This document shows positions 3,726 to 43,837 of a stretch of 54,309 nt of DNA, in pieces. Numbering within the stretch: the stretch's first letter is position 1; each line of letters opens with the position of its first letter. The notes under the pieces are model-generated. The model searched no databases and was not told the origin of the DNA. It worked only from the letters and a program-made list of their open reading frames with translations. The position numbers and the translations under genes are program-made. Origin of the DNA: Acidobacteriota bacterium (lineage in GTDB: Bacteria; Acidobacteriota; Terriglobia; Bryobacterales; Bryobacteraceae); the NCBI GenBank assembly GCA_016871155.1, contig VFZO01000013.1:1-54309 (forward strand). The letters are read 5' to 3'.

Positions 3726-4244
3726 GGAAATTCCTTTCGCAGATGCATCCTACCAAAACCTGCGATGCCTCTAATCGCCCCCGGGTCCTCATAGCTGCAT
3801 CTGATTCGTCATGGATTCCCGGCATCGCGCGAACCTGGCGGTCAAAACTTTCGCAATGTCCAGGTACTCCGTTGCCATGCCGTGCGCTTCTCCCGGGCGG
3901 CGTCCAAATCGAACAATCGCCACTCCGGCTCGCCGGCCATTTGAATTGCCTTACACGTCGCCTTTCGAACGGCGCGATTGTGTTGTCCGGCCGCGGGAGG
4001 TTCTCCGCCTGCGGCCCGCACGCAGGCCAGCGCCAGAGCCAAGGTCGACAAAACCTTTACATAGCGGGTTCCGGCCGGGGCCCGTCCGGGCTAACTCAGG
4101 ATCATCGCAACGCGAACTCCGCCTTCCCCGGCAGGTTGGCCTTGACAAAAAGTAAACGCCGTCTTCCCGCTGACCGCGGAAAGACGGCGCCGTTCAAAAC
4201 ATGCTCTGTCAGTCTATCGAATGGCCTGGGAGGGTCGCGCAGCG
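3726..4244. other. 519-bp intergenic region between two receptors, with a possible small exported ORF
   Basis: The region contains the terminator at 4157-4189 and the upstream region of receptor A. One minus-strand frame, 3842-4051, is worth noting. Starting from TTG it would encode 69 residues with a signal-like beginning (STLALALACVRAAGG) and codon use that looks coding. It has no good ribosome-binding site and I recognise no family. An overlapping minus frame near 3790-3900 also looks protein-like, containing GEAHGMATEYLDIAKVL. A frameshifted small gene is therefore possible, but so is chance in high-GC DNA. No RNA gene is evident. Confidence 0.3.
4157..4189 (-). terminator. Rho-independent terminator of receptor B
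   Basis: A stem of 14 positions with one C:A mismatch (arms starting CGCCGTCTT and ending AAGACGGCG) closes a short loop around TGACC. It starts about 55 bases after the stop codon of receptor B. Read on the minus strand it is followed at once by TTTACTTTTTGTC, the expected U-rich tract. This is the clearest intrinsic terminator in the window and isolates receptor A from receptor B transcription. Confidence 0.85.
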
Positions 4245-23850: not shown

Positions 23851-25218
23851 CTAGGTAAGGACCTTCTTCACGACGTTCCCGTGCACATCCGTCAGGCGGT
23901 AGTGCCGGCCCTGGAATTTAAACGTCAGCTTTGTATGGTCCACGCCAAGGCAATGGAGAATCGTGGCGTGCAGGTCGTGCACGCTTACGGGGTCCTCGGT
24001 GATGTTGTAGCTGAAGTCGTCCGTGGCGCCGTGGATCGCGCCGGCCTTCACGCCGCCGCCCGCCATCCAGATCGTGAAGCAGCGGGGATGATGATCCCTG
24101 CCGTATTCGGCCGGAGTCAGAGGCCCCTGGCAGTACACGGTGCGTCCGAACTCCCCGCCCCAAACCACGAGCGTTTCGTCAAGTAATCCGCGATCGGCCA
24201 AGTCCGCCACCAGCGCGGCGGAGGCCTGGTCCACGGCCCTGCACTGCGCAGGAAGTGCGTCCTGCAGGTTGCGATGATGATCCCAGCCGCGGTGGAAGAG
24301 CTGCACAGTCCGGACACCGCGCTCGGAGAGCTTTCGCGCCAACAGGCAGTTGGCGGCAAAGCTGCCGGGCTTCCGCGCGTCGGGACCGTACCGGTCCACG
24401 ACATGGGCGGGTTCCTTGGAAAGATCGGTCAGCTCCGGAACCGAGGTCTGCATGCGAAACGCCATCTCGTACTGGGAGATGCGCGTGGCGACTTCGGGAT
24501 CGCCGGTGACGTCCAGTTGTTCGCGATTCATCTCCGCCAGGCCGTCCAGGAACTTTCGGCGCAAATCGCGGTCCATGCCGACGGGGTTGGAGAGATGGAG
24601 AACGGGGTCCGCGCCGGAACGGAAGCGAACACCCTGATAGGAAGACGGCAGAAACCCGCTTCCCCAAACACGATCGGCCAACGGCTGATCGCCGAGCTTC
24701 TGGCCGGCAGCGGTCATGACGACGTAGGACGGCAGGTCCTTATTCTCGCTGCCCAACCCGTAGGAGAGCCAAGAGCCGAGGGACGGGCGGCCCGCCAGTT
24801 GGAATCCGGTTTGAAAGAACGTGATGCCGGGATCGTGATTGATCTGCTCGGTGTTCATCGACCGGATGAAGGCGAGTTTGTCGACAATCTTTGCGGTGTG
24901 CGGCAGCAGTTCGCTGACCCACATGCCGCTCTGGCCGTATTGAGCGAATGAATAAATCGACCGCGCCACGGGAAAGCTCGTTTGCGTGGCGGTCATCGCG
25001 GTCAGCCTCTGTCCCATGCGAATCGAGCCAGGCAACTCCTGCCCGTGCAGGTCTTTCAACCGCGGCTTGTAGTCGAAGGTCTCAATTTGAGAAGGGCCTC
25101 CGAACATGAACAGGTAGATAATCCTCTTCGCCTTGGGCGCGAAGTGTGGTGCCGTGTCACCCGCCATGAGCGATTGAATCGCCGCCTGCGCCAGGAAATT
25201 TCTTCGGGTCGATTGCAT
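23851..25218 (-). CDS. Tat-exported DUF1501 protein (module 1)
   Basis: A 455-residue DUF1501 protein. Its leader [11 protein letters not shown] is a twin-arginine signal. Conserved family motifs are present in order: [14 protein letters not shown] (about 38-51), [51 protein letters not shown] and [17 protein letters not shown] at the end. I recall the family being grouped with the alkaline phosphatase/sulfatase fold; the Asp/His motifs would then be metal ligands, but no reaction is established. It starts 4 bases after the PSD1 stop, so the two are coupled. It is likely the last gene of the esterase-HExxH-PSD1-DUF1501 run. Confidence 0.92.
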
Positions 25219-25222
25219 TGCT

Positions 25223-28210
25223 CTATTCCTTCGTCACGGCGGCATCCAAATTCAGAATCTGGCTGGCTACCGACATCCAAGCGGCGTGCTCAACGGGATC
25301 GATGGAGGTATCGCGCGCGGACTCTCCCTGGCGCAAGAACTCTGCGGCATCTGCGGGATTGGTGCGGAAGCGGTCCCGAGCGTAGGCGAGCATGTCTCTC
25401 AGGACGTCTCGCTCCTTCGCCCGGGCCTGCCGGCCCACGACGTGGCGGAACATGTGGTCGATGCGGCTCTCAGCCGCGGTTTCGCGGATGGCGCGCTGGG
25501 CCAGGGCGCGGGCGGCCTCGAGAAACTGGGTGTCGTTCATTAGGTGCAGGGCCTGCAGGGGTGTATTCGTACGGCCTTCCCGCACCGTGCAACTCTCGCG
25601 CAGGGCGCTGTCGAAGGTCGCCATGAACGGGGGCGGCGAGGTGCGGCGCCAGAAAGTGTAAAGGCTGCGGCGATAGAGGGACTCGCCGGTATCGGGAGCG
25701 TAGTCGGCTCCGCCGTTCTCCGTCCAGAGTCCGCCCGGCTGATACGGCTTCACGCTCGGGCCGCCGGCTTTCTCCACCAGCAGGCCGGAGACCGCCAAAG
25801 CCTGATCGCGCACCATCTCGGCCGGCAGCCGAACACGAGGGCCACGAGCCAGCAGGCGGTTATCTGGATCCTTGTCTCTCAACTCGGGCGTCACGCGCGA
25901 CGATTGGCGATAGGTCTCAGAAAGCAGAATCGTTTTCCACAGTTTCTTGACGTCCCAACCGCTCTCCATGAACTCCACCGCCAGCGAATCCAGCAGTTCT
26001 GGATGCGAGGGCCACTCGCCCTGCGCGCCAAAGTCCTCGACAGTTTTCACAAGTCCGGTGCCGAAGATCATCTGCCAGAACCGATTCACGGCGACGCGCG
26101 CGGTGAGCGGATTCGAACGGTCTGTTAGCCACCGGGCCAAGCCCAAGCGATTGGGCGGCGCGCCCGCCGGGAGCGGATGCAGCGCCGAAAGGACCCCTCG
26201 CTCGACCTTCTCACCGGGGCGGTCGTACGCGCCGCGCAGCAGGATGTGTGTAGGGCCACGGTTCTCGCGCTCCTGCATAACCATCACGGTTGGCAAGTCG
26301 CGATTGTACGCCTCTAACGCTTTCCTCGCGGCGCGCGCCTGTGCGTCCAGGGTTTTGAAGCGCGGCTCGGCGGCCAGCGCCAAGTAGGCGCGGCGCGCGA
26401 GTTCGGACTCCGTGGCGGTTCGGGCCACCACGCTCTTCCGCACGATGCCGTCCAGGCCGGATTCGAGCGCCAACATTTCGACTTCGTTGGGGTCGAGCAC
26501 GTCGTTATACGAACGGAATTCGGCCATCGTGCCCTGGAATCCATGGGGCCACCCGGCGCCCGCGCCGAGGTTCAATTTCCCCGGCTTCCGGAAGTCCTGG
26601 TTCAGGGCGTCCAGTTGAGTCTCCAGTTCCACAGGTTTTCCATCGACGTACATTTTCACGCCGGACGCCATGCGGCTGCCATCGTACGTAATCGCCAGAT
26701 GTACCGAACGCCCTTTGGCAACCGGCGTTTTCGAACGCACCAGAATGGCGTCGTCGAGACGGCGGACGGCGAAGTGCGCTTCTACGTGACCGTTGTCCAG
26801 GTTGACACCGTAGCCTTCCGAATAGTTTTGGACACCGGTCATCCGATGGAACAGCACGCCCTGGCCGGTCTGGGAATTGAAACGCAGAGCCACCGTGAAG
26901 CGATTTTGAAACCCGAATTGCCCGTAGTCGGCGGTTTCATGCATTGTCTTGCCGTCAAAGGAGAGCGAAGTCAGCGGCACTTCGTCACGCAACGATTCGC
27001 GAAGCATCCACTTCGTGCCGGCGGGCAGCGATTTCTCCCAAACCGATTGCGCTTTCGAGAGCTCGCCTTCGGCGGCGGCCAGGGCCTGCGACGCCGCGGC
27101 GGCGCGGCTCTGAAGCCGGGACATCTCCGCCCGGTGGGCCGTAGTAGGCGCCTGAATCAGAGGCGGTGAATTTCCGTACTTCTGGTAGCGCCCGGGGTCG
27201 CCGATCTGGTCGAAGTAGGCAAAGAACTGGTAGAACTCCTTCTGCGTGATGGGGTCGTACTTGTGGTTATGGCAGCGGGCGCAGCCCACGGTCAAGCCGA
27301 GAAATACGGTTCCCATGGTCTCCAGGCGGTCGACCGCGTATTCGGCCAGGTACTCTTCGGGCACGATGCCGCCTTCCGAATTACCCCGGTGATTTCGGCT
27401 GAATCCGGTGGCGATGATCTGCGACTCCTTCGCGTTGGGAATCAGGTCGCCGGCGATCTGTTCGGTAATGAACCGGTCGAACGGCATGTTCTTGTCAAAG
27501 GCTTCGATAACCCAGTCCCGCCAGCGCCACATGAAGCGCTCGGCATCGGTCTGATAGCCGTTGGTGTCCGCGTAACGGGCGGCGTCGAGCCAGCGGATCG
27601 CCATGCGCTCGGCATAACGAGGACTGGCAAGCAAACGGTCGAGTTGCTTTTCGTACGCATCCGGCGAGCGGTCGTTGACAAACTGATCGATCTCGGCGGG
27701 TGAGGGCGGGAGACCGGTGATGTCCAGCGCCGCGCGGCGAAGCAACGTCTGCGGGTCCGCCGCCGGCGACGGCCGCAGTCCCTCCTTCTTCAAACGCTCC
27801 CGCACGAAAACGTCGATGGAGCCTTCGGTCTTCACCGGCGGAATGAACGACCAGTGTTTCTGCCAGGGCGCGCCTTCGGAAATCCACTGCGTAATCGTCG
27901 CGATCTCCTTTGCCGATACGCGCAGGCCCGTATGAACCGGCGGCATACGAAGCGCCTGATTCTCGCTCTGGATTCGCTTGAGGATCAAGCTCTCCCCGGG
28001 CTTGCCGGGGACGATGGCCTTTAGCGGCCCTTTGGCCGACTCCTCGCGGTCGAGGCGCAGCCGGATCCCTTTATTGGCAGCATCCTGGCCGTGGCAGCTC
28101 AGGCAGCGGTCCGAAAGAATGGGGCGGATGTCGCGATTGAACCCCAGCGGCTGGGCGTGGCAAACGGCGGCCGCCAGAAACGCGCCGCACATCGAATGGA
28201 AACGCAGCAT
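25223..28210 (-). CDS. PSD1/DUF1549/DUF1553 cytochrome-domain protein with LamG-like insert (module 1)
   Basis: A 995-residue exported protein with a signal peptide ([19 protein letters not shown]). The planctomycete cytochrome-C domain has a first heme motif C-L-S-C-H at 36-40. The DUF1549 (PSCyt2) domain follows at about 140-345, with a second CxxCH (C-A-R-C-H) near residue 307 in [15 protein letters not shown] LamG/concanavalin-like segment lies at about 420-600 ([10 protein letters not shown] is the typical strand). DUF1553 (PSD1) forms the C-terminus (about 690-960), with [14 protein letters not shown] and [14 protein letters not shown]. Heme attachment implies periplasmic redox activity. 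The physiological role is unknown. Confidence 0.92.
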
Positions 28211-28237
28211 GGCTTAGCCGTCATTGTATGCCAAACC

Positions 28238-28732
28238 TCAGTAACGAAGTGGTTCCCTGGTGAGCGCCGCGAAGAAGGCGCGGCGCCCGTCGCACCATCT
28301 TTTCGGGAGCGTGAACTCCTCGTGGCTCTCGATTCCCGCATACAGCCAGGCGGCGGTATCGCAGAAGGCTTCGCAGGCATAAGAGTTCGTCCGCACAGGC
28401 CGTTCGCCCTTTCGCCATTCGCTGGACCAGCCGAGTTCGCCCCGCGCGCCCCGGCGCAGTTCCGCGGCGATCACACTTTTCCACGCGGCGCGCTTTGGAT
28501 TCCCAAGGCGCACCCAGACGAAATGAAAGATCTCGTGGACGAGAATGCGGTCTCGCTCTTTGCTATCGCGCCGCAGACGGGGATGCAGATGAATTACGCG
28601 CCCTCGAATGTCGGAGCCGGCGACGGCATCGCGAGATCCATCCCGCAAACCGGACGTCCAGACGATCCGGATGGGTTCGCTATTCGATTGCGAGAGGACC
28701 GAACGCAGGCGTCCCCATATCGAGTTCGTCAT
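28238..28732 (-). CDS. Small HExxH putative zinc metallopeptidase
   Basis: A 164-residue protein with H-E-I-F-H at residues 66-70 on a hydrophobic helix (ILVHEIFHFVW), and a second helix E121-A-F-C-D125 (YACEAFCDTAAWL). HExxH plus a downstream ExxxD is the pattern of small gluzincin-type zinc peptidases. There is no signal peptide, so it may act in the cytoplasm unless exported otherwise. The start overlaps the end of the esterase gene by 53 bases, and no ribosome-binding site is visible. A later start is possible, but an in-frame Met is not available before the motif. It ends 27 bases before PSD1 module 1. Function is unknown, and the peptidase call rests on the motifs alone. Confidence 0.65.
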   Translation of the reverse strand: MTNSIWGRLRSVLSQSNSEPIRIVWTSGLRDGSRDAVAGSDIRGRVIHLHPRLRRDSKERDRILVHEIFHFVWVRLGNPKRAAWKSVIAAELRRGARGELGWSSEWRKGERPVRTNSYACEAFCDTAAWLYAGIESHEEFTLPKRWCDGRRAFFAALTREPLRY

Positions 28733-30152: not shown

Positions 30153-30181
30153 GTTCAAAATAGTATCATCGCGGGGTGACG

Positions 30182-31246
30182 ATGCAACGCAGGGAGTTCC
30201 TTACCGGCGCGCTGGGAGCCGCAACGCTCCAGGCGAAGATGACGGGGCCTATCCCGATCGGCCTGAATACATACTGTCTCCGGTCGCTGCGCTGGCACGA
30301 CGTAGAGCACTTGGAGTATTGCGCTAAACAGAGGCTGGACGCAATATTTCTACAGGATTCGCTGGATCCGAAGAAGGACGATCCGTCGCATTGGCAGTGG
30401 GTGCGCGGCCGCGCCAAGGAACTCGGGCTCCACCTGGAGACGGGCGGCGGCGGGTTTTTGCCGCGAACGCCAGGCGACAAAGGAGCGTCAATCGCAAACC
30501 TGCGACAGAACATCCGGCGTGCCGCCGCGATGGGTTCCCCGATCATGCGCGTGATTCTGGCCTCCGACCGCGCGAGCTTTCCACCAGGTCCAGTGGAGGC
30601 GCACATGGAGACGGCGATTCAGCTCTTTCGCGAGGTAAAGTCGCAGGCCGTCGACGCAAACGTCAAGCTCGCCGTCGAGGTGCACAAGGACCTGCAGGCC
30701 TGGGAGCACAAGATCGTCATTGAGGAGGCAGGCAAAGACTTCGTCGGGACCTACCTGGATACGGGCAACCCGGTGTTCGTTTTGGAGGATCCGTCGCAAA
30801 CCCTCGAGGTGCTGGGTCAATACGCCCTGACCGTTCACCTGCGAGACTCGGTTGTGTATGAACACCGCGATGGCATCGCTGTGCAATGGGTGCCGCTAGG
30901 CGAAGGTACGATCGACTTCCCCAAGTTCATCGCACGGCTTCGCGAGATCGTCACCGGTGTCCACATCTACATCAAACCCATTACCGGCCGGCCGCCCTAC
31001 GTTCACAAGATTTACGACAAGGATTTCTGGACAGCGTTCCCAAAGGCCCGTTCCGCCGACTTCGCCCGGTTTTTGACCCTCGCCAAGAAAGGCCATCCGT
31101 ACGACGGGCACGTTGTGATCGAGGATCTCTACGGCCGGCCGGTGCCCGGCCACTTCCTCTCGGCCGTTCAATACCAGCAGCGCGAACATATGGAGCGGTC
31201 TATCGCCTACGCTCGCAAGGTGCTGGGCCTGGGAGTGCGGAGCTAG
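30182..31246 (+). CDS. Exported xylose-isomerase-like TIM-barrel protein (sugar phosphate isomerase/epimerase family)
   Basis: A 354-residue protein with a twin-arginine leader (MQRREFLTGALGAATLQA). ATG 30182 is chosen because GGGGTGA precedes it; a GTG two codons upstream is the alternative. The rest is an AP-endonuclease-2/xylose-isomerase barrel. Candidate metal ligands are Glu in KLAVEVHKD, Asp in GTYLDTGNP, His in LTVHLRDS and Glu in HVVIEDLYG. Members interconvert sugars or inositol derivatives, but exported ones are largely uncharacterised. It is divergent from the esterase operon and probably shares control with it. Confidence 0.83.
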   Translation: MQRREFLTGALGAATLQAKMTGPIPIGLNTYCLRSLRWHDVEHLEYCAKQRLDAIFLQDSLDPKKDDPSHWQWVRGRAKELGLHLETGGGGFLPRTPGDKGASIANLRQNIRRAAAMGSPIMRVILASDRASFPPGPVEAHMETAIQLFREVKSQAVDANVKLAVEVHKDLQAWEHKIVIEEAGKDFVGTYLDTGNPVFVLEDPSQTLEVLGQYALTVHLRDSVVYEHRDGIAVQWVPLGEGTIDFPKFIARLREIVTGVHIYIKPITGRPPYVHKIYDKDFWTAFPKARSADFARFLTLAKKGHPYDGHVVIEDLYGRPVPGHFLSAVQYQQREHMERSIAYARKVLGLGVRS

Positions 31247-31359
31247 GCTTTCGCGGTTGTCAGCTTCAAGAGGCACACGTCCTGAACGGCATTCTCCGCG
31301 AGCAGCAGGCGCATGATCGCGCGAGCCATCGCTCCGAAGCGGTGCTCGTTTTCGACCAA
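31243..31359 (-). other. Coding-like short frame of unknown origin
   Basis: A minus frame, open from about 31418 to TAG 31243-31245, encodes a segment that looks like a protein C-terminus: HRFGAMARAIMRLLLAENAV then QDVCLLKLTTAKA. Third-position G/C is high across it. It has TTG (31359) and ATG (31329, 31314) starts but no good ribosome-binding site. It begins just beyond the BON gene stop and overlaps the isomerase stop by 4 bases. It may be a tiny gene, the tail of a decayed gene, or chance. Confidence 0.3.
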
Positions 31360-31396
31360 CGAGACGCGCCGCCCCGGTAGGGATTTGGGCAACGGA

Positions 31397-31774
31397 CTAC
31401 CGGGGCTCCCCCCGCGTCACCTGAGCCCGGCGGCGGCCCTGCGCTAATCTGGCGCGTGCCTTCTCCTTGGCGTCTTCGGAGATTTGAATGTTGTTGACGA
31501 CGGCCCGTGCGCCCGCCGACTTGGCGAGACGGGTGGCGGCACCCTTGTGCTGTACAACACCCGTCTTCCCCTCGATGGTAACGACGCCGCCAGACGTCTT
31601 GAACTGAAATCCATTGCGTCCGATCTTCGATTTCGCCAGCTTTCCCTGGATTCGGGCTTGAATCTCCGCGTCCGTTGGCCGCACCGCAGAAGACACCGGC
31701 GCTTTGGGCCTCGCGTTCGGCTGCTGGCCGGGGAGCAGACAAAGGCAAGACACAGCGAGAAGGAATATTCGCAT
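31397..31774 (-). CDS. Exported BON-domain protein
   Basis: A 125-residue protein. ATG 31772-31774 is chosen because it begins a signal peptide (MRIFLLAVSCLCLLPGQ), possibly with a lipobox-like Leu-Ser-Cys. After a Pro/Ala linker, one BON domain covers about 45-110: DAEIQARIQGKLAKS, then GVVTIEGKTGVVQHKGAA and ARAVVNNIQIS. BON domains are thought to bind phospholipid membranes and occur in periplasmic stress proteins. The C-terminal ~20 residues are strongly basic. It diverges from PSD1 module 2 with a 54-base shared promoter region. The exact role is unknown. Confidence 0.8.
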   Translation of the reverse strand: MRIFLLAVSCLCLLPGQQPNARPKAPVSSAVRPTDAEIQARIQGKLAKSKIGRNGFQFKTSGGVVTIEGKTGVVQHKGAATRLAKSAGARAVVNNIQISEDAKEKARARLAQGRRRAQVTRGEPR

Positions 31775-31828
31775 CCTATGTAGATAGTGGGCGCCAAACG
31801 CCAAAACTCTCATTTAGAATTTAGTCAG

Positions 31829-34606: not shown

Positions 34607-35949
34607 TGCACCGAAGAGGTTTTCTATTCTCCACCGCCGCCGCGACGCTGCTGGGTGCCGCGGCGCCCAAGGCCAAGCGTGTCATCTATCTGTTCCAGCA
34701 TGGCGGCCCGTCGCAACTGGACCTGTTCGATTGGAAGCCGGAGCTTTATCGTCATCGGGGCAAGAACCTGCCCGCTTCCATCCGGATGGGTCAGCGGCTG
34801 ACGGGAATGACAGCGTATCAAGAGTCGTTTCCCACGGCGTCGAGCCTGTTCAAGTTCGCGCAGCACGGCCAGTCCGGGGCGTGGTTGAGCGAGTTGCTTC
34901 CGCACACCGCGAGGATCGCCGATGAACTCTGCATCATGAAGTCGATGCACACCGAGGCGATCAACCACGATCCGGCGGTGACGTTCTTTCAAACCGGCTT
35001 CCAGTTGGCCGGGCGGCCGTCCATCGGCTCCTGGCTGGCGTATGGACTGGGCAGCGAGAACAAGGATCTTCCGGCGTTTGTCGTCATGATCTCCCAGGGA
35101 CGGGGCAATTCCCAGGCCCTGGCCGACCGTATGTGGGGCAGCGGTTTCCTGCCGACGAAGTACCAGGGCGTGAAGTTCCGCTCCGGGCGGGATCCCGTTC
35201 TGTATTTGAGCAATCCAGACGGATATGACGCGGGCGCGCGCCGGCGCTATCTGGACGACCTGGGCGCGCTGAACCAATTGAAACTGGAGGAGAGCGGCGA
35301 TCCGGAAATCGCCACACGTATCGCCCAGTACGAGATGGCGTTTCGAATGCAGTCGTCGGTCCCGGATCTGACGGACCTTTCCAAGGAACCGGAAAAGACG
35401 TTTGAGATGTACGGCGCGACGGCGCGAACGCCAGGGTCATACGCGGCGAATTGCATTCTGGCCCGGCGTTTGGCGGAACGCGGCGTACGCTTCATACAAC
35501 TTTTCCATCGCGGTTGGGACCAGCACAATAAGCTACCCACCGAAATCGTGAAACAGTGCGAGGATACCGATCAGCCGACGGCGGCGCTCATCCTGGACCT
35601 GAAGCAGCGGGGCATGCTGGACGATACGCTGATCGTCTGGGGCGGCGAGTTCGGCCGCACCGTCTATTCGCAAGGGGAGTTGACGGATACGAACTATGGC
35701 CGGGATCATCATCCACGCTGCTTCACGATGTTCGCCGCCGGCGGCGGTTTCCGCAAAGGCTACACATACGGCGAGACGGACGATTTCAGCTACAACATCG
35801 TGAAGGACCCGATGGATGTCCACGACCTGCACGCGACCCTGCTGCACCTTCTGGGCGTGGACCACACGCAGCTCACCTTCAAATTCCAAGGCCGCCACTA
35901 CCGCCTGACCGACGTGCACGGCAAAGTCGTTCAGCCACTGCTTTCGTAA
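34603..35949 (+). CDS. DUF1501 protein (module 2)
   Basis: A 448-residue DUF1501 protein coupled to PSD1 module 2 through a 4-base ATGA overlap. The leader [20 protein letters not shown] is a twin-arginine signal. All family motifs are intact: [65 protein letters not shown] and [15 protein letters not shown]. The protein is likely periplasmic. It is followed after 54 bases by an M20 peptidase on the same strand. Chemistry is unknown, as for module 1. Confidence 0.92.
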
Positions 35950-36003
35950 TGCGGCCATCGTCCAAGAGGTTCATCGAGAACCGTAACATCTGGGAGTCTT
36001 TTC

Positions 36004-37242
36004 GTGCTCGCACAACTCGGTAGCGCCGTCATCTCGGCGCTCCTCGCCGCCGTCGACGGCGAGTCCGCTTCCGCCACGGAACTGCTGGAAAAACTGGTCT
36101 CGCGGAACTCGGGTACGTTTCACACCGCCGGCGTCCAATCGATCGCCAATACGATGGAGGCCGAACTCAAAGCACTCGGTTTCACGACGCGCCAGATCGA
36201 CAACTCGGCGATTCAGCGCGGAGCGCATGTGTACGCCGAACGCCGCGGAAAGGCGCCGGGCAAACCCGTGTTGCTGATCGGGCACATGGATACCGTGTTC
36301 GAGCCGTCCCATCCTTTTCAGAACTGGGAGCGCAAGGGACGAACCGCCGTTGGACCAGGAACCTCGGACATGAAGGGCGGTCTGGTTGTAATGCTCACGG
36401 CTTTGAAAGCGATGGCCAAGGCCGGTGAGCTCGATAACGTCTCGCTGACGGTGTTTCTAACCGGCGACGAAGAGGCGCCCGGCGAACTGAGACAGGCGCG
36501 GCAAGGTTTGATCGAAGCGGGCAAGCAGGCCAGGGCGGCGCTCTGTTTTGAGACCGGCATTCGCGGCGTGGGGCAGGACTTCGCCTCCACGGCCCGCCGG
36601 GGTTTCGTTGGTTGGGAACTGCGATCCAGCGGTACCGCCGCGCACTCCGGCCAAATATTCACGGAGCGGGCCGGCTACGGGGCCGTGTTCGAAATCAGCC
36701 GGATTCTCAACGAATTTCAGAGCACGCTGCGAGAGCCGAACATGACATTCAACGTGGGGCTCCTGTTGGGCGGTGCGAACGCGAAGGCCGACCGGTCCGG
36801 AACGAGTTCCGTAACGGGCAAGGACAACATTGTTCCCTCCGAGGCGCTCGCCCGGGGTGAAGTTCGCGCGCTTTCGCCGGAGCAGGTGGCCCGCATCAAG
36901 GACCGGATGCACGCCATCGTCGCCAAGAACCTGCCGGGAACCAAGTCCACGTTGACGTTTGAAGAGGGCTATCCGCCGATGGCTCCCACGCCGGGCAACA
37001 AGCGATTGCTCCAGCTTCTGAACGAAGGCAGCCGGGCCGCGGGTCTCGGCGAGATCGGCGAGTTGGACCCGATGCAGCGCGGAGCGGGCGACATCTCGTT
37101 TATCGCACCGTATGTCGACAGCCTGTCCGGGCTCGGCGCGATCGGCACAGGCGCCCACGCCGCCGGGGAGTCGGTGGATCTGGAAAGCATTCCACGCCAG
37201 GCCAAGCGGGCTGCGCTGCTGATCCGGCGGCTCGGTCTGTAG
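36004..37242 (+). CDS. M20-family metallopeptidase (glutamate carboxypeptidase-like)
   Basis: A 412-residue zinc peptidase with all M20 catalytic residues: His94 and Asp96 (GHMDTVFE), Asp122 (GPGTSDMKGG), catalytic Glu156-Glu157 (TGDEEAPG), Glu182 (CFETG), and the last ligand His385 (GTGAHAAGE). A dimerisation domain occupies about 200-310. The order of motifs is closest to carboxypeptidase G2-like enzymes, which remove C-terminal Glu or hydrolyse amide-linked amino acids. GTG 36004 is the chosen start, with GGGAG 8 bases upstream. The N-terminus is weakly hydrophobic, so export is uncertain. It follows DUF1501 module 2 and converges on DUF1501 module 3 with 6 bases between. Confidence 0.9.
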   Translation: MLAQLGSAVISALLAAVDGESASATELLEKLVSRNSGTFHTAGVQSIANTMEAELKALGFTTRQIDNSAIQRGAHVYAERRGKAPGKPVLLIGHMDTVFEPSHPFQNWERKGRTAVGPGTSDMKGGLVVMLTALKAMAKAGELDNVSLTVFLTGDEEAPGELRQARQGLIEAGKQARAALCFETGIRGVGQDFASTARRGFVGWELRSSGTAAHSGQIFTERAGYGAVFEISRILNEFQSTLREPNMTFNVGLLLGGANAKADRSGTSSVTGKDNIVPSEALARGEVRALSPEQVARIKDRMHAIVAKNLPGTKSTLTFEEGYPPMAPTPGNKRLLQLLNEGSRAAGLGEIGELDPMQRGAGDISFIAPYVDSLSGLGAIGTGAHAAGESVDLESIPRQAKRAALLIRRLGL

Positions 37243-37248
37243 CGAACG

Positions 37249-38661
37249 CTACGCCAGCAGCTTTTTCACGACGTTGCCATGCACGTCGGTCAACCGGAAC
37301 CAGCGGCCCTGAAACTTGTAGGTCAGCCGCGTATGGTCGATGCCGAGCGCATGCAACAGCGTGGCTTGAATGTCGTGAATATGTACGGGATCGCTGACGA
37401 TGTTGTAGCTGTAGTCGTCGGTTTCGCCCATCGAAAACCCGGCTCTGAATCCACCGCCCGCCATCCACATGGCGAAGTTTCGCGGGTGGTGATCGCGCCC
37501 GTAGTCGGTGTCCGTAAGTGGCCCCTGGCAGTAGACGGTTCTCCCGAATTCGCCGCCCCAGACCACAATCGTGTCGTTCAGCAGCCCGCGCTGTTTCAAA
37601 TCCCTCACCAGCGCGGAAGCGGCCTGATCGCTGGCTTCGCACTGCAACTTCATGTCACGCGGCAGGTTGCGATGCTGATCCCAGCCCTTGTGATAGAGCT
37701 GCACGAATCGCACGCCGCGCTCCACCAATCGCCGGGCGAGCAGGCAGTTCGCCGCATAGGTTCCCGGTTTCTTGGCATCTTCTCCATACAACTGGAACGT
37801 CGAAGCCGGCTCTTTCGAAAAATCGGTCAGTTCGGGCACCGAGGCCTGCATCTTGTACGCCATTTCGTACTGCTGGATGCGGGTATCGATTTCCGGATCG
37901 TGATACGCGGCTTCGCGCATTCTATTGAGCGCGCCCACCGCGTCGAGCATTTCCCGCCGGTCGGTACGCGACACGCCGGGAGGGTCCGCAAGGTAGAGGA
38001 CCGGCTCCTTGCCGCCGCGAAGCCGGACGCCCTGATAGCGGGACGGCAGAAATCCGGCGCCCCACAGGCGCGAAAACAGCGGCTGATCCGCGTTAATACT
38101 TGCCTGCTGCGATAGCAACACAACGTAAGCCGGAAGGTCCTGCGATTCGCTTCCCAGTCCGTAGGAGACCCAGGCGCCCATGCTCGGCCGGCCCGGCTGC
38201 TGGCTGCCGCTTTGAATAAAGGTGATGGCCGGATCGTGGTTGATGGCGTCGGTGTGCACGGCCAGGCAGAGCGCCATCTCATCGGCGATTTTCTTGTGAT
38301 GGGGTATCGCGTCGCTCATCCAAACGCCGGCGCGGCCCGCCCGTTCGAATTTGAAAATCGACGGCGCCACGGGCAGCGTCTTCTGCCCGCTGGTCATCCC
38401 GGTGATTCGCTGCCCCATTCGCACGGACCCAGGCAGATCCACACCCGCGTGCTTGACCAACTGCGGCTTGTAGTCGAACAGATCCAATTGAGACGGACCG
38501 CCGGACTGGTGCAGCCAGATGACCCGCTTCGCCGTCGGTGTATGGTGGGTCGTCGCGCCGTTCATCAAGCTGGAGAGCGCGGCCAGCCCGATGGCCTTGG
38601 CGCCTTTCCCAAGCAGTTGCCGCCGCGTTTCCAATAGGTCCATTTCACGCGAAACATTCAT
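37249..38661 (-). CDS. Tat-exported DUF1501 protein (module 3)
   Basis: A 470-residue DUF1501 protein. ATG 38659-38661 is selected because it lies 5 bases after the PSD1 stop; the longer open frame upstream is antisense-like sequence inside PSD1. The leader has a twin-arginine core (ETRRQLLGKGAKAIGLAALS). Motifs are [65 protein letters not shown] and LGIDHTRLTYKFQGR. Two positions differ from modules 1 and 2: HKGWD for HRGWD, and RNF for RCF. This supports it being the more distant paralogue. Confidence 0.92.
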   Translation of the reverse strand: MNVSREMDLLETRRQLLGKGAKAIGLAALSSLMNGATTHHTPTAKRVIWLHQSGGPSQLDLFDYKPQLVKHAGVDLPGSVRMGQRITGMTSGQKTLPVAPSIFKFERAGRAGVWMSDAIPHHKKIADEMALCLAVHTDAINHDPAITFIQSGSQQPGRPSMGAWVSYGLGSESQDLPAYVVLLSQQASINADQPLFSRLWGAGFLPSRYQGVRLRGGKEPVLYLADPPGVSRTDRREMLDAVGALNRMREAAYHDPEIDTRIQQYEMAYKMQASVPELTDFSKEPASTFQLYGEDAKKPGTYAANCLLARRLVERGVRFVQLYHKGWDQHRNLPRDMKLQCEASDQAASALVRDLKQRGLLNDTIVVWGGEFGRTVYCQGPLTDTDYGRDHHPRNFAMWMAGGGFRAGFSMGETDDYSYNIVSDPVHIHDIQATLLHALGIDHTRLTYKFQGRWFRLTDVHGNVVKKLLA

Positions 38662-38666
38662 GGCAT

Positions 38667-41600
38667 CTACTCCTTGGTAATCACTTCGTCCAGGTTCAGC
38701 AGAACACTCGCCACGTTCGTCCACGCGGCCAGTTCGTGGACGGCCAGCGACGTGTCCACCGGGAACTTCCCGACACTCAACAGCGCTTTGGCCGCCGGGG
38801 CGTCGTTGCGGTACCGCTCCAGTTGGCGCGCGGCCAGTTGATTCAATACAACTGCTTCCGTCGACGAAGGGGCACGGCCGGTCACGCGCCGGAACGCGAA
38901 CGTGAGCCGGTCCGCGGCGCCGGCGGAGCGCAGCGTATTCTGCGCCAGAACGCGTGCAGCCTCCACAAACGCGGGATCGTTCATGAGCACCAGAGCCTGC
39001 AGCGGCGTGTTGGTCACGCTTCGCCGGGGCACGCACTTTTCGCGGTCCGGGGCGTCGAACGTGGTCAAGGGAGCGGGCGGCGCCGTGCGCTTCCAGAACC
39101 AGTACATGCCGCGGCGGTACAGATCGTCACCGGTGGACTCTTTATAGACCTGTGCCGAGAAGATCTCTCCGCGAGCGATCTCCTCCCAGATTCCTTCCGG
39201 CTGATACGGATAACTGCTGGGGCCGCCGATTTTTGCATTCAACAATCCGGCGGAGGCAAGCGCATTGTCACGCACCAGTTCCGCGGGAAGACGGAATCGC
39301 GACATACGCGCCAGCAACCGGTTTTCCGGGTCTCTCTCCACCAACCCGGGCGACGCCGCGCTGGTTTGCCGGTAGGTGGCCGAGGTGACGATCATTCGGT
39401 GGAGCGCCTTTACGTCCCACTTCGCCGAAAACTCGGCCGCTAGCCAATCCAGCAGTTCCGGGTGGCTGGGCGGCTCACCTTGGGTGCCGAAGTTCTCGCT
39501 CGACTTCACCAGGCCGATGCCGAATAGATTCTGCCAGAACCGGTTCACGGCGACGCGCGCCGTCAATGGGTGCTTCGGGTCCACCAGCCAGCGCGCCAGC
39601 GCCAGGCGGTCCACGCTTCCTTGCGCGCCGAGTGGCGGCAGCACGCCCGGAGTCGCCGGGCCCACCTTTTCCCCTTTGTTCCGATAGTCGCCCCGGGCCA
39701 GCATGAAGGTCTCGCGCGGCTTGTCCAGATCCGCCATCACCATCGTGTTGGCGATCTCATCGTTCAAGGCCGCCTGCTCCGCTTTCAGCTTCCGAAGTTC
39801 AGCCGCCGCCGCGCGCAGTTCCACGGGCGCCGCTTCGCTTAGGTAGTAGTCCCGCAACCGCGCCGTCAGTTCCCTAGGCCGCGCCTTCACCGGAATGTCG
39901 ACCATGTGCGAGAGGCGATGATGCGTGGCCAGATGATAGGCCTCGTCACTCTGCAGAGCCCGCGAATACAGGCGCAGGTCCGCGATCCGGCCGCGGAATC
40001 CATGCCGATCGGAGCCGGCCGCCTGACCGATGGCGAATGCGGAGACCGCCGGCAGTGGCGCCGACTCCTCTCGCACCACAGCGGCCGCGGCGCCGTTCAC
40101 GCGGATCGTCGCACCGCCCTCCGGCGTGTGGGAAATCGTGACGTGGTACTGCTCTCCCTGCACTAGACGGCTGGCGGTTCGAAGGTGGCCCTTCGCCGTC
40201 GCCACGTGCAGATGGGCTCCCCGGCGTAGATGGGGCAAAGGCTCCGATGCGTCCCACCACACGTCCAGGCCCGGAGCCTGGAACACTGTTTGCGGTTCAT
40301 GATGTCCCTGCACCAGCCATGCCGCTATGGAATACGTTTCGCTCCAGCGAGGATCGAAGAACGTGACGTGGGAGGGAGCCGTGAAAACAGTGGCGCGGCC
40401 CACACTCGTCAGTGCCTCGCTCAACTCGCCGCGATGCAACTGGCCGTGCCGGTAGCCGCCGCTGTGTTCGTGGACGGTACCATCCATCTCATAGTGCGCC
40501 ACGAGCCCCGTTTTCACGGCCGGCAACGAGCTGAACACGCGTGGCACGCCCTTTTCAAACGCCTCCACCAACGGCTTCACCTTCTCATCCGCCGTCGTCT
40601 CCTCCAGCCCGCGGATGCGCAAATTCAGAAAATCTTCCCGGCGCTTCTGTTCCGGTGTGTGCAAGCGCAAAACCGGATCCGCATTGCCGTCCCTGCCATC
40701 CAGCCCCTTTTCCTTGACGCCATTGAAGAACGCGAAGAAGCTGTAGAAATCCTTCTGTTTGATCGGGTCGTACTTGTGGTCGTGGCAGCGGGCGCAGCCC
40801 ATCGTCATCGCCATCCAGACAGTCGCCGTGGTTTCGGCGCGGTCCGCCACGTACTCAATCAAATACTCTTCCGGAATCGCCCCGCCCTCGTAGTTGATCA
40901 TGTGATTGCGATTGAATCCGCTGGCGATTTTCTGTTCCACCGTCGCGTTCGGCAGCAGGTCGCCGGCCAGTTGTTCGATAGTGAAGCGGTCGAAGGGCAT
41001 GTTCTTGTTGAACGCGGCAATCAGCCAATCCCGCCACGGCCACATGTCGCGATGAGAGTCGATGTGAAAACCATGCGTGTCGGCGTAACGCGCAAGATCC
41101 AACCAATGCAAAGCCAACTTTTCGCCATAGTGGGGCGAGGCCAAGAGGCGGTCTACCTGCTTCTCGTAGGCATCGGCCGACCTATCCCGTAGAAAGGCAT
41201 CCACCTCCGCCGGCGTTGGCGGAAGGCCGGTCAGGTCGAGAGCAAGGCGGCGGAGGAGCGTAACACGGCCGGCTTCTTCGGATGGCTTCAGGCCTTCCTT
41301 TTCAAGCCGCGCCAGAACAAAATTGTCGATCCCGTTCCGAGCCCATTTGTTTTTCGAGACGGGCAGGGGAGGACGCACAGGCGCCTCATACGCCCAATGC
41401 AGTTTGAACTCGGCGCCCTCGGCAACCCAGCGGCGCAGCAGCTCGACTTGCGCGGCGTTCAGTACTTTGCCCGTCGCGCGCGGCGGCATCCGCAAGTTCA
41501 CGTTAGCGTGAGTCAGGCGGGGCACAATTTTCGGGAGAGCCGCCTGGACGCCCTCACGGGTGTCCAGGCGCAGCCCCGCCATTCGCGTCGAATCGTCCGG

Positions 41601-41717
41601 CCCGTGACAGGCAAAACAGTTGTCGGAGAGCAGCGGCCGGACGTCTCGATTGAAATCGACTTTGGAATCGGCGGCGTACGCCGCCATGGTGAGGAGGCTT
41701 AGAACGCGAATCGGCAC
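38667..41717 (-). CDS. PSD1/DUF1549/DUF1553 cytochrome-domain protein (module 3)
   Basis: A 1016-residue exported protein with a short signal peptide (MPIRVLSLLTMAAYA). Heme motif C-F-A-C-H is at 34-38 and the second, C-A-R-C-H, near 307 (MGCARCHDHKYDPIKQKDF). A LamG-like region lies at about 420-600 and DUF1553 at the C-terminus (NRFWQNLFGIGLVKSSENFG ... NTPLQALVLMND). It is more diverged than modules 1 and 2, for example HGFHIDSHRDMWPW where they have NGYQ...MWRW. It begins 18 bases after an S41 peptidase and ends 5 bases before DUF1501, so the three form an operon. Confidence 0.92.
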   Translation of the reverse strand: MPIRVLSLLTMAAYAADSKVDFNRDVRPLLSDNCFACHGPDDSTRMAGLRLDTREGVQAALPKIVPRLTHANVNLRMPPRATGKVLNAAQVELLRRWVAEGAEFKLHWAYEAPVRPPLPVSKNKWARNGIDNFVLARLEKEGLKPSEEAGRVTLLRRLALDLTGLPPTPAEVDAFLRDRSADAYEKQVDRLLASPHYGEKLALHWLDLARYADTHGFHIDSHRDMWPWRDWLIAAFNKNMPFDRFTIEQLAGDLLPNATVEQKIASGFNRNHMINYEGGAIPEEYLIEYVADRAETTATVWMAMTMGCARCHDHKYDPIKQKDFYSFFAFFNGVKEKGLDGRDGNADPVLRLHTPEQKRREDFLNLRIRGLEETTADEKVKPLVEAFEKGVPRVFSSLPAVKTGLVAHYEMDGTVHEHSGGYRHGQLHRGELSEALTSVGRATVFTAPSHVTFFDPRWSETYSIAAWLVQGHHEPQTVFQAPGLDVWWDASEPLPHLRRGAHLHVATAKGHLRTASRLVQGEQYHVTISHTPEGGATIRVNGAAAAVVREESAPLPAVSAFAIGQAAGSDRHGFRGRIADLRLYSRALQSDEAYHLATHHRLSHMVDIPVKARPRELTARLRDYYLSEAAPVELRAAAAELRKLKAEQAALNDEIANTMVMADLDKPRETFMLARGDYRNKGEKVGPATPGVLPPLGAQGSVDRLALARWLVDPKHPLTARVAVNRFWQNLFGIGLVKSSENFGTQGEPPSHPELLDWLAAEFSAKWDVKALHRMIVTSATYRQTSAASPGLVERDPENRLLARMSRFRLPAELVRDNALASAGLLNAKIGGPSSYPYQPEGIWEEIARGEIFSAQVYKESTGDDLYRRGMYWFWKRTAPPAPLTTFDAPDREKCVPRRSVTNTPLQALVLMNDPAFVEAARVLAQNTLRSAGAADRLTFAFRRVTGRAPSSTEAVVLNQLAARQLERYRNDAPAAKALLSVGKFPVDTSLAVHELAAWTNVASVLLNLDEVITKE

Positions 41718-41735
41718 GCTCCTATTTCATCACGG

Positions 41736-43502
41736 TTAGGGCGCGGTCTTGGCGATCTCGGTCAGCAAAACATTGGTCACGGCGTCCATGTACGGACGTC
41801 CCCGCGCCATCAGATTCTCGCGGGTCATATAGTTCACTTCCACGTCGGGAAGAATGCCGATGTTCTCGATGTACGGCGCTACGGGCAGGTTTGGCGCTTG
41901 GATCGGCCGCGCGCGGATCACCAGGCTGTTGGTCGCTGAAGTAAAACTCTCCGAATAGGTGCCGTACGACCAACCGGTGACGGAGCCGCCTGCACCGGCC
42001 GTACGCATGCCGACAATCGGTCCGCGTTTGGCGTCCTGCATCATGCCAGGGAAGATATCGCCGAACGAAATGGAGAGTTCGTCGACAAGAACGATGAGCG
42101 GCTTATCGTAAGCGGCCAAAGTTCCATCGGGACCGCGAAGCGGTTCGAACATGGAACCCGGCGCTGGAAACGACTCGGATGACGTGCCGCACACGGCAAT
42201 GGGACCGGTCATCGCCCGGTTTTCCTTCGCCGACGCTTGGAGCTCAGTCAGGAAGCTTTCGTAGATATTGATGACCCACTGCTCGGCCCGCTGCGCCCGC
42301 GCGAGGCGGAGCGAGTTCGATACTTGCGCAATCAGCTGGAGAGTCGGGCGCAAGTGCTCGGTGAACGCATAGAACGGCTGCGTCATCAGCCGTTGCGCGT
42401 AGTCGATGCCAATGCAGCCGCCGCCGGTATTCCGCGAGATGTCGACGATCAAGCCGTCGGTGTTCGCTTTGAAGAACGCGATTTCGGCGTCAAGTTCGCG
42501 CAACGCGAGGAACCCGGACCCGGGCGCGAAATTCGGAATCCGGAGAAGTCCGACTCTCTTCCCCGACGCCATAAACGTACCCGTGAAGAAGGTGTCGGCC
42601 GCCGACTGACCCCGCCGAATGGCAAATCCCGCTGGTGGATTGTAGTAGGGGGCGCGGCTACCCCAGCCAAGGATGTACCCGCGTGTGGTTTGGCCACCCT
42701 CCCCGTCATCGATTACACGCTGATTAATGTCGCGAATCACATCCGAGTCGTACTTCCAATTCCGAAGCTCGTTCAGAGTTTCCATGTAGTCGAGCCCGGC
42801 GGCCGTACGGTTCGACGCCGAGGCGAACGAGGGCGACGGCACGGGCGGAACGCTGAGGATGGGTGCGCCCGTCTTCAACCAGGTAAGCCGGAAGGTCTCG
42901 ACGGTTCCCGTCGAGGCCCGGCGAATGGCAACATCGGACTGATCCGGAAGCTCCACGGCCCGTGGAAACCGGGACTGGGATCGAAATACCAACGCGTCCG
43001 CCGCCATGCGCCGTGCGCCCAGCGCGTTGCCGTATCCGGTCAGGCGGGTCAATCCGGCTAGAATCGTTTCCGCCGCTTGCCCATCGATCGAAACAAGCTC
43101 GTCGCCGATCTCGAACGGAAACTGGGCGGCTGGATAGCGCGTCCGATTAATGCTCTCGATCAGAGGCTTGCCGTCGTACAGGTCAACGAACAGCCCAAGA
43201 TCGGCGGCGAATAAGCTACGCATCGAGTGGCTCGAGTGACCGTCCTGTAGACTGGCGACAAATTCCGCGCAGATCTCGAAAAACTCCAAATCGCTCTTGG
43301 AGGCCCGCACTCGGTCCATCCAGGGCCGCAACTCAAAAATGTTGACACCCAACGCCTGGATCTTCCAATTCGCCGGACCATAGCGTTTCGCGTAGACGCC
43401 GGCGAGCGCCTGAAACTCAAATACCTTCTGCTCTTGCGTCAATTGCGCGGCCAATGGCACGGCAGCCAAGGTGGCGGCAAGTACTCCAACAAGAATCCGC
43501 AT
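41736..43502 (-). CDS. Exported S41-family (C-terminal processing type) peptidase
   Basis: A 588-residue secreted protein with a signal peptide (MRILVGVLAATLAAVPLAAQ) and an AAGGAG ribosome-binding site 8 bases before the ATG. An N-terminal helical region ends in LQDGHSSHS, typical of S41 peptidases. A PDZ-like segment lies at about 125-150 (FEIGDELVSIDGQ). The peptidase core has IVDISRNTGGG (about 353-364) and VLVDELSISFGDIF (about 466-480), where the catalytic Ser is expected; it reads SISFGD rather than the usual SASAGE. GAGGSVTGW follows. It diverges from receptor D. Whether the altered active-site region retains activity is uncertain. Confidence 0.82.
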   Translation of the reverse strand: MRILVGVLAATLAAVPLAAQLTQEQKVFEFQALAGVYAKRYGPANWKIQALGVNIFELRPWMDRVRASKSDLEFFEICAEFVASLQDGHSSHSMRSLFAADLGLFVDLYDGKPLIESINRTRYPAAQFPFEIGDELVSIDGQAAETILAGLTRLTGYGNALGARRMAADALVFRSQSRFPRAVELPDQSDVAIRRASTGTVETFRLTWLKTGAPILSVPPVPSPSFASASNRTAAGLDYMETLNELRNWKYDSDVIRDINQRVIDDGEGGQTTRGYILGWGSRAPYYNPPAGFAIRRGQSAADTFFTGTFMASGKRVGLLRIPNFAPGSGFLALRELDAEIAFFKANTDGLIVDISRNTGGGCIGIDYAQRLMTQPFYAFTEHLRPTLQLIAQVSNSLRLARAQRAEQWVINIYESFLTELQASAKENRAMTGPIAVCGTSSESFPAPGSMFEPLRGPDGTLAAYDKPLIVLVDELSISFGDIFPGMMQDAKRGPIVGMRTAGAGGSVTGWSYGTYSESFTSATNSLVIRARPIQAPNLPVAPYIENIGILPDVEVNYMTRENLMARGRPYMDAVTNVLLTEIAKTAP

Positions 43503-43837
43503 CGGAATTCTCCTTACTCTTGAATATGTTACTGACTACATGCAGCGTCCTGCATGGTAGCATTCTGGCCGATGCATTTGGAGTCGAGGCCCGATGGGTG
43601 CGGCGGGATCGAGGCACTGCGGGCGGGATGAAGTACCGCCGGAAGAGGGGTCGAGAGAACGGCTGGAAACAGGCCTGTCGCCGGTTTTGGTTTTTGTACG
43701 ATGGTCCGAACAAGCCATCCGCAACCACCGGCCCGCGCAGGGAAGGAGGCATTCCGATCGGCTTCGGCGCGGGAGTAAAGCACCGGATGTATGCTGGTGG
43801 AGTCCGCGAGACCCAGAATGGAAAGCCGGTTCAAACC
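43503..43837. promoter_or_regulatory. Divergent intergenic region between S41 peptidase and receptor D, with an inverted repeat
   Basis: This 335-bp stretch separates two divergent starts. It contains a perfect inverted repeat CATGCAG-CGTC-CTGCATG at 43539-43556, 37 bases upstream of the peptidase start, a good position for an operator. The rest stays open in the receptor frame, but it lacks a signal peptide or a better ribosome-binding site, so I treat it as non-coding. No RNA gene is seen. Confidence 0.45.

What the first reader, a model, noticed from the sequence alone, without database searches (positions are those of the whole stretch)
23851..43502. Three PSD1-DUF1501 modules, each joined to a different hydrolase
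Within 20 kb the PSD1-DUF1501 pair occurs three times with gaps of 4, -4 and 5 bases. Each is in an apparent operon with hydrolases: SGNH esterase plus HExxH protein (module 1), M20 peptidase (module 2), S41 peptidase (module 3). The hydrolase differs while the pair is constant. This suggests a general periplasmic redox/DUF1501 unit reused with different substrate-opening enzymes. PSD1-DUF1501 pairing is known in planctomycetes and acidobacteria, but its function is not.
Basis: partly seen in the sequence, partly recalled or inferred. Interest (0 to 1): 0.75.

Follow-up and report, generated by a model that had tools for sequence, protein, structure and literature searches.

The report
Autonomous cytochrome–DUF1501 gene pairs, changing neighbours
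The three gene pairs are real and belong to a family of about seventy such pairs in this genome, but the hydrolases beside them were not found beside the matching pairs examined in related species.

Summary
The anatomy is confirmed. Three PSD1→DUF1501 pairs (gaps 4, −4, 5 nt) lie next to a SASA/SGNH esterase plus HExxH protein, an M20 peptidase and an S41 peptidase. I found 71 such pairs in this genome, so three within 20 kb is expected by chance (P about 0.66). In the same-genus loci examined, matching pairs keep both genes but not the window's hydrolase: SASA 0 of 6, M20 0 of 9, S41 0 of 12 assessable. They carry a PQQ_2 propeller, a galactose-oxidase-like protein, Gfo/Idh/MocA oxidoreductases, other hydrolases, or none of these. 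Genome-wide, neighbours are mixed: S41 and, weakly, sulfatases are enriched near pairs; M20 and SASA outside the window are not. The constant unit is the pair: PSD1 directly precedes DUF1501 in 70 of 80 loci from other genomes, and the two trees match (Mantel r 0.93). A predicted structure gives DUF1501 a sulfatase/alkaline-phosphatase-like fold without the CxPSR motif (0 of 61). PSD1 proteins carry cytochrome c motifs and often a lectin-like domain. Best reading: a portable extracytoplasmic redox unit for glycans with exchangeable partners. Its function is inferred, not shown.

The parts
23851..25218 (-). D1, DUF1501 protein (twin-arginine N-terminus; AP/sulfatase-type fold inferred from the D2 model)
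   Evidence: Pfam PF07394 7.6e-160; alignments A1, A4
25223..28210 (-). P1, PSCyt1-PSCyt2-LamG-PSD1 protein, CxxCH at aa 36 and 310
   Evidence: Pfam; motif positions
28238..28732 (-). 164-aa HExxH ORF, overlaps SASA by 53 nt; found overlapping SASA in three relatives, not next to P1 there
   Evidence: L176; L188, L195
28680..30158 (-). SASA (SGNH-type) esterase
   Evidence: PF03629 3.2e-54
30176..31246 (+). xylose-isomerase-like TIM barrel, syntenic with SASA and P2-D2 in six relatives
   Evidence: PF01261 6e-19
31397..31813 (-). small BON-like ORF between TIM barrel and P2, syntenic in relatives (the BON name is by eye)
31787..34606 (+). P2, PSCyt2-PSD1 protein with LamG match just below cut-off (likely start 31829), CxxCH at aa 33 and 293 from that start; AF2 model made
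34603..35949 (+). D2, DUF1501 protein; AF2 model pLDDT 87.9, sulfatase/alkaline-phosphatase-like fold
36004..37242 (+). M20 peptidase, 54 nt after D2; not found beside D2 in nine relatives' loci
   Evidence: PF01546 1.3e-22
37249..38661 (-). D3, DUF1501 protein (ORF opens to 39036, likely start 38661)
38667..41717 (-). P3, PSCyt1-PSCyt2-LamG-PSD1 protein (likely start 41687), CxxCH at aa 24 and 298 from that start
41736..43502 (-). S41 peptidase; not found beside P3 in twelve assessable relatives' loci
   Evidence: PF03572 6.3e-17

Best explanation
PSD1-DUF1501 is an autonomous two-gene unit, probably an operon because the genes nearly touch, that has duplicated as a unit (71 pairs found here). 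Shown: adjacency, co-duplication, CxxCH motifs and lectin-like domains in PSD1, a sulfatase/AP-like fold in a DUF1501 model, and a twin-arginine motif in most DUF1501. Inferred: PSD1 is a c-type cytochrome that binds glycans, and DUF1501 is an exported AP-fold metalloprotein without the formylglycine nucleophile. Inferred further: together they modify or oxidise a glycan-derived substrate outside the cytoplasm and pass electrons to small c-type cytochromes. Different copies serve different substrates, and the enzymes beside a copy (hydrolases or oxidoreductases) are exchanged over evolutionary time. The three hydrolases in this window are such lineage-specific neighbours.
For: Pair constancy: 71 P-to-D pairs, 43 with gaps of -10 to 20 nt; PSD1 directly before DUF1501 in 70 of 80 loci across phyla, 72 pairs, 60 of them with gaps up to 200 nt; matching trees, Mantel r 0.932, 0 of 2000 permutations, 64 of 71 pairs used. 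Partner exchange at matching pairs. Redox or glycan side: C..CH.HK in 48 of 48 aligned PSD1 proteins, two CxxCH in 37 of 48; Laminin_G_3 in 37 and PSCyt1 in 42 of 48. PSCyt1 is the commonest family among scanned co-directional neighbours, 6 of 33, one of them being another PSD1 protein. PQQ_2 propeller upstream of P1 in 6 of 6, galactose-oxidase-like or Gfo/Idh after D2 in 6 of 9, Gfo/Idh divergent from P3 in 8 of 15. On three Alteromonadaceae plasmids cytochrome c genes lie close to the pair; two of these pairs lie among glycan-degradation genes, the third beside a fucose permease gene. DUF1501 fold.
Against: No activity or haem binding is known or testable here. In this genome 32 of 62 full PSD1-type proteins have one CxxCH, not two. 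The redox-type neighbours change between lineages too, so they may be as incidental as the hydrolases; PQQ_2 propellers need not be dehydrogenases; Gfo/Idh, NHL and oxidoreductase genes also occur among background partners. The Singulisphaera plasmid pairs have no glycan or extra cytochrome genes annotated beside them. Foldseek matches have low TM-scores and high rmsd. Gene calls come from my own script, orthology rests on best hits, most assemblies are drafts, and the cross-phylum sample was chosen by similarity to DUF1501 (best 80 of 589).
Confidence: 0.4

Rival explanations
1. One reading: a general periplasmic redox/DUF1501 unit coupled to substrate-opening hydrolases, each pair with its own hydrolase in one operon.
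For: Short co-directional gaps: HExxH-P1 27 nt, D2-M20 54 nt, S41-P3 18 or 48 nt. S41 enriched near pairs. Two relatives put other hydrolases directly after the matching pair: GDSL esterase (4-nt overlap) and amidase after D3 in G085 and G086. Two plasmid pairs lie in polysaccharide regions.
Against: SASA 0 of 6, M20 0 of 9, S41 0 of 12 assessable matching pairs, although SASA is present in all 18 and M20 in 14 of 18 other genus genomes. No PSD1 within 1.5 kb of the 29 S41 relatives whose loci were fetched from other genomes, some cut by contig ends. M20 and SASA show no enrichment outside the window. Hydrolase share of partners not significant without the window, P=0.12. Cross-phylum pairs have a co-directional neighbour within 200 nt in only 18 of 62 cases upstream and 19 of 67 downstream.
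Confidence: 0.2
2. Neutral gene-order turnover: the pairs are independent operons and their neighbours are draws from a genome rich in secreted enzymes.
For: Partners include argininosuccinate synthase and a SecA-like protein. 42 of 71 pairs have a close partner against 95 of 135 background anchors, P=0.12. A cluster of three pairs is expected by chance.
Against: S41, FGE-sulfatase-type, sulfatase and TonB-receptor-like genes are enriched beside pairs in a family-blind clustering: 4 of 187 vs 0 of 796, 6 vs 6, 8 vs 12, 15 vs 33 (P 0.001 to 0.03, not corrected for 7 families tested). PQQ_2, Gfo/Idh and galactose-oxidase-like neighbours are kept by several genomes.
Confidence: 0.3
3. DUF1501 is itself the hydrolase: an AP-superfamily esterase or phosphatase acting on glycans, with PSD1 as its binding and anchoring partner; the CxxCH motifs need not carry haem.
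For: The 50 Foldseek matches shown are sulfatases, alkaline phosphatases and related enzymes, best E 1.3e-7, 185 matches at E<=1e-3. D306, H308, E349 and H369 are invariant in 61 of 61.
Against: CxPSR in 0 of 61; the sulfatase metal Asp aligns with E349. TM-scores only 0.25-0.41 with rmsd 8-20. PSCyt1, a cytochrome c family, matches 42 of 48 partners.
Confidence: 0.2

Closest known systems
PSCyt2/PSD genes next to constant unknown genes in freshwater Verrucomicrobia (He et al. 2017, PMC5615132; passages including the abstract, and one section, read)
   Same: Same PSCyt/PSD domains with carbohydrate-binding modules, constant neighbouring unknown gene families, sulfatases often nearby; a role in carbohydrate metabolism already suggested
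   Different: Verrucomicrobia; the passages read show no test of whether matching pairs keep their neighbours; DUF1501 is not named in the main text searched
PSD1/PSC2 proteins of Rhodopirellula baltica (PMC2754498; one passage read)
   Same: PSD1 with PSC2, 41 copies of each domain reported, a function in redox reactions already suggested
   Different: The passage does not mention DUF1501 or hydrolases beside them
DUF1800-DUF1501 operon beside bacterial chitin synthase genes (PMC5122149; passages read)
   Same: DUF1501 with one constant partner gene, Tat motif noted, moves between genomes together, polysaccharide context
   Different: Partner is DUF1800, not PSD1; 1 of 48 PSD1 proteins shows a weak DUF1800 match, 0.00077, below cut-off
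DUF1501-containing genomic clusters of PVC bacteria (Kamneva et al. 2012, seen only as cited in PMC4452313, one passage read)
   Same: DUF1501 gene clusters treated as a genomic module with signal peptides
   Different: Discussed there in relation to intracellular membranes; the original was not read
Type I sulfatases (PF00884)
   Same: Fold and C-terminal sequence similarity of DUF1501
   Different: No CxPSR/formylglycine motif; the metal Asp position is Glu
Bacteroidota polysaccharide utilisation loci (recalled, no call)
   Same: Analogy only: a constant pair multiplied across a genome with varying enzymes beside it
   Different: Here the matching pair does not keep its enzymes

Membership tests
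PSCyt2-PSD1 proteins (PF07583, PF07587) | Both Pfam domains | tested here: met
   All three window proteins above cut-off; 48 of 48 in A5
DUF1501 (PF07394) | Pfam domain above cut-off | tested here: met
   All three, 497-533 bits vs cut-off 27
c-type cytochrome | CxxCH haem-attachment motif | tested here: met
   Two per window PSD1 protein
c-type cytochrome | Covalently bound haem | not testable with these tools
   Needs haem staining or spectra
Formylglycine sulfatase (type I) | Sulfatase/AP fold | tested here: met
   AF2 model of D2 and Foldseek against PDB, low TM-scores
Formylglycine sulfatase (type I) | CxPSR/CxASR motif | tested here: not met
   0 of 61 DUF1501; 6 of 7 own sulfatases as control
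Alkaline phosphatase superfamily metalloenzyme | Complete two-metal ligand set | tested here: inconclusive
   D306, H308, E349, H369 invariant; F350 where sulfatases have Asn or His; profile alignment probability 52%; no atomic superposition possible
Tat substrate | Twin-arginine near N-terminus | tested here: met
   RR within 45 aa in 50 of 61; RR.[FLV] within 70 aa in 45 of 67 own proteins; export itself not tested
   SASA 0 of 6, M20 0 of 9, S41 0 of 12 assessable
   S41 and weakly sulfatases yes, M20 and SASA no; overall 12 of 68 vs 5 of 68, P=0.06
   Sigma-70 consensus scan found 3 sites, 3.8 expected: uninformative

The most novel reading that the evidence does not exclude
PSD1-DUF1501 is a portable extracytoplasmic electron-extracting unit for glycans: an AP/sulfatase-fold protein with a histidine near where sulfatases carry formylglycine, paired with a lectin-bearing c-type cytochrome. 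Fixed slots beside the pair receive different carbohydrate hydrolases or oxidases in different lineages: before P1, PQQ_2 propeller versus SASA-HExxH; after D2, galactose-oxidase-like/MauG, Gfo/Idh, a possible alpha/beta hydrolase or M20.
Probability: 0.2. Interest if true: 0.75.

Novelty: new member of a known kind. Interest (0 to 1): 0.38.

Why it matters
These pairs are highly multiplied (71 found here; 41 copies of each PSD1/PSC2 domain reported for Rhodopirellula baltica in PMC2754498), yet I found no study of their function. Showing that the pair, not the neighbouring hydrolase, is the unit of inheritance warns against guessing its substrate from one genome's neighbours. The sulfatase-like fold without the formylglycine motif, the recurring redox-type neighbours and the plasmid copies in algae-associated bacteria give concrete, testable handles.

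Tried and rejected
Rejected: 'three in 20 kb is unusual'. Rejected: 'SASA belongs to pair 1'; in six relatives it sits with the TIM barrel and P2-D2, divergent from P2. A chimeric assembly cannot be excluded without reads (contamination estimate 6.54%), but every junction is intergenic with intact genes. A PSD1-DUF1800 homology was considered; 1 of 48 members matched, weakly. Foldseek on the PSD1 model: the matches shown at E<=0.001 look like lectin-type domains for its LamG part; none shown for the helical core. Promoter scan uninformative. Paper searches for DUF1501, DUF1549, DUF1553, DUF1800, PSCyt and PSD1 listed no title on the function of the pair in that open-access library; I read passages of four papers only.

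Limits and dropped rows: of 68 close co-directional partners 41 were scanned with Pfam, one more was identified, and 26 were judged by eye as non-hydrolases. The SASA-HExxH unit is not among the 68, because my caller missed the HExxH ORF. The background count (2 Esterase, 1 GDSL, 1 HAD, 1 BNR_2 = 5 of 68) leaves out a DPPIV_N and a Lysine_decarbox match, and one search printed 25 of 29 families. One search printed 25 of 40 families; four neighbours cut by locus ends were left out of it, one of them (L241) sialate-esterase-like by eye. For one search I merged split matches and dropped those below cut-off (sulfatase 115 to 107, M20 16 to 14). Alignment A4 used 58 of 63 complete DUF1501 plus the window's three.
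Full report
Each window PSD1 protein has two CxxCH motifs, PSCyt2 and PSD1 domains and a LamG-type match; that of P2 lies just below Pfam's cut-off.

Is it more than chance? The window lies in a 7.22 Mb draft genome of 577 contigs with 86 DUF1501 and 83 PSD1 matches, fragments included. I fetched the regions of all DUF1501 matches but two that lie below the cut-off, called genes with a codon-based script, and found 71 same-strand PSD1→DUF1501 pairs, 43 of them with gaps from −10 to 20 nt. With that many copies, three within 20 kb arise in 66% of simulations that ignore contig limits. The three PSD1 proteins are each other's relatives (42-51% identity in BLAST), but the matching genes lie on different contigs in G083, G084 and G085.

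Are hydrolases over-represented beside pairs? Only 42 of 71 pairs have a co-directional partner within 120 nt, against 95 of 135 background anchors (Fisher P=0.12). Positions of four families in the whole genome, tested against the flanks of 86 PSD1/DUF1501 gene clusters, gave: S41 4 of 9 within 3 kb (expected 0.45, P=0.00065; without the window contig 3 of 8, P=0.006); sulfatase 8 of 107 within 1.5 kb (expected 3.2, P=0.014), 10 within 3 kb (P=0.04), 12 within 5 kb (P=0.08); M20 1 of 14 and SASA 1 of 3, the single hit being the window's own each time. A family-blind clustering of 187 neighbour and 796 other genes (seven families had three or more neighbours, P values uncorrected) gave an Ig/PPC-like secreted protein 5 vs 1 (P=0.001), S41 4 vs 0 (P=0.001), an esterase-like family 3 vs 0 (P=0.007), FGE-sulfatase type 6 vs 6 (P=0.015), sulfatase 8 vs 12 (P=0.023), TonB-receptor-like 15 vs 33 (P=0.026), and an ABC-ATPase-like family 4 vs 8 (P=0.18); names partly by eye. 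Hydrolases among partners: 12 of 68 versus 5 of 68 in a background sample, P=0.06; 10 of 66 without the window's two, P=0.12; 12 versus 7 if two doubtful background genes count, P=0.16.

Does a pair keep its hydrolase? This is the most direct test and the answer here is no. Among 18 same-genus genomes searched besides the window's I fetched 6 P1-D1, 9 P2-D2 and 15 P3-D3 loci, not every match listed; orthology rests on best hits, and 8 of the 15 P3 matches are only 52-56% identical. One search gives their neighbours. P1: SASA in 0 of 6; a PQQ_2 propeller precedes it in all 6, directly adjacent with gaps of 9-27 nt in 4 and with an opposite-strand ORF between in 2. D2: M20 in 0 of 9; it is followed by a galactose-oxidase-like protein in 4 (the copy scanned, from G094, matches Glyoxal_oxid_N, GO-like and di-haem MauG domains), Gfo/Idh in 2, a 288-aa protein without Pfam match that I read by eye as an alpha/beta hydrolase in 2, and an opposite-strand small ORF in 1. 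P3: S41 in 0 of 12 assessable loci, 3 more being cut by contig ends; instead GDSL esterase and amidase after D3 in 2, a convergent RND-type pump in 4, a divergent Gfo/Idh gene in 8, other genes in 1. The hydrolases exist in the relatives: SASA in all 18, M20 in 14 of 18. SASA has its own conserved setting: SASA, TIM barrel and P2-D2 stay together in 6 of the 9 P2 loci, with SASA divergent from P2; the BON-like ORF was called in 5 of these 6 and the HExxH ORF in 3.

The unit that is kept is the pair. Of the other ten, two have the order reversed and several no PSD1 in reach. Co-directional neighbours within 200 nt are few: 18 of 62 upstream, 19 of 67 downstream. Of 33 complete ones scanned, the commonest family is PSCyt1 (6, one of them another PSD1 protein), then NHL and chitobiase/Fn3-associated domains (3 each); among the 25 of 40 families printed, hydrolase families match one or two members each. 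Within this genome the PSD1 and DUF1501 trees agree: r=0.932 (64 of 71 pairs used, 0 of 2000 permutations), and r=0.783 within the main subfamily of 48.

What the proteins look like. The AF2 model of D2 (pLDDT 87.9, pTM 0.89) matches sulfatases and alkaline phosphatases: 185 matches at E<=1e-3, the 50 shown with TM-scores of 0.25-0.41 and rmsd of 8-20. Profile comparison aligns its GEFGR segment with the sulfatase SDNG metal segment (probability 52%, E 1.4e-4), and a 16-sequence profile finds sulfatases weakly (E 0.015). The sulfatase CxPSR motif is absent (0 of 61). Invariant residues include H122, D306, H308, E349, R352 and H369. That H122 sits near the place of the formylglycine is my reading of motif spacing, not a superposition. 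RR within 45 residues occurs in 50 of 61 DUF1501; a twin-arginine motif was noted before for another DUF1501 (PMC5122149, passages read). The cross-phylum PSD1 proteins all carry C..CH.HK (48 of 48), with Laminin_G_3 in 37 and PSCyt1 in 42; in this genome 32 of 62 full-length ones have a single CxxCH.

Context elsewhere. tblastn found DUF1501 relatives on 5 plasmids. Three Alteromonadaceae copies, from algae or algal mud, lie directly after DUF1553 genes with a c-type cytochrome gene close by. The Saccharobesus copy is near GH88, GH28, pectate lyase and pectinesterase genes; that on Catenovulum pCadTS8_1 near GH43, GH115 and GH98; that on pCadTS8_2 beside a fucose permease gene. Haliscomenobacter carries cytochrome-DUF1501-DUF1553 before sigma/FecR/TonB-receptor genes. 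Singulisphaera carries two tandem pairs without such neighbours.

Interpretation. The pair is best read as an autonomous, portable extracytoplasmic unit, probably redox and glycan-related, whose neighbours are exchanged. A role in carbohydrate metabolism was already suggested for PSCyt genes by He et al. 2017 (PMC5615132), and a redox role for PSD1/PSC2 proteins in PMC2754498.

Noticed in passing
own genome loci L052, L053, L054, L048 (upstream), L027 (downstream): A divergent subfamily of 8 pairs has an extra Ig/PPC-like secreted protein as co-directional neighbour in 5 of 8: a possible three-gene variant. Only one of the five has a Pfam match (PPC).
   Followed up: partly
own genome loci L030, L064, L068: A second divergent subfamily of 8 pairs has S41 or S41-like peptidases beside 3 pairs and FGE-sulfatase-type genes beside 2.
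   Followed up: partly
L188:3-3056 and homologues in L176, L190, L195: Large galactose/glyoxal-oxidase-like protein; the G094 copy also matches a MauG di-haem domain. It follows D2 in four relatives and is not beside D2 in the window.
   Followed up: partly
plasmids NZ_CP026605.1, NZ_CP109966.1, NZ_CP109967.1: DUF1553-DUF1501 pairs with cytochrome genes on plasmids of algae-associated Gammaproteobacteria; horizontal gain is a guess, no tree was made.
   Followed up: partly
window 28238-28732: HExxH protein without a Pfam match, overlapping the SASA gene by 53 nt here and 56 nt in three relatives: a coupled pair of its own.
   Followed up: partly
L130:3344-4678: Weak DUF1501-like frame (36 bits) on the opposite strand next to tandem S41 peptidases in a same-family genome.
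   Followed up: no
L191: In G085 the M20 match lies about 520 nt before another PSD1-DUF1501 pair on the same strand.
   Followed up: no
window 10643-12118 and 255-7628, 43787-47080: A sulfatase and several large TonB-receptor-like genes lie in the same contig (TonB naming by eye).
   Followed up: no
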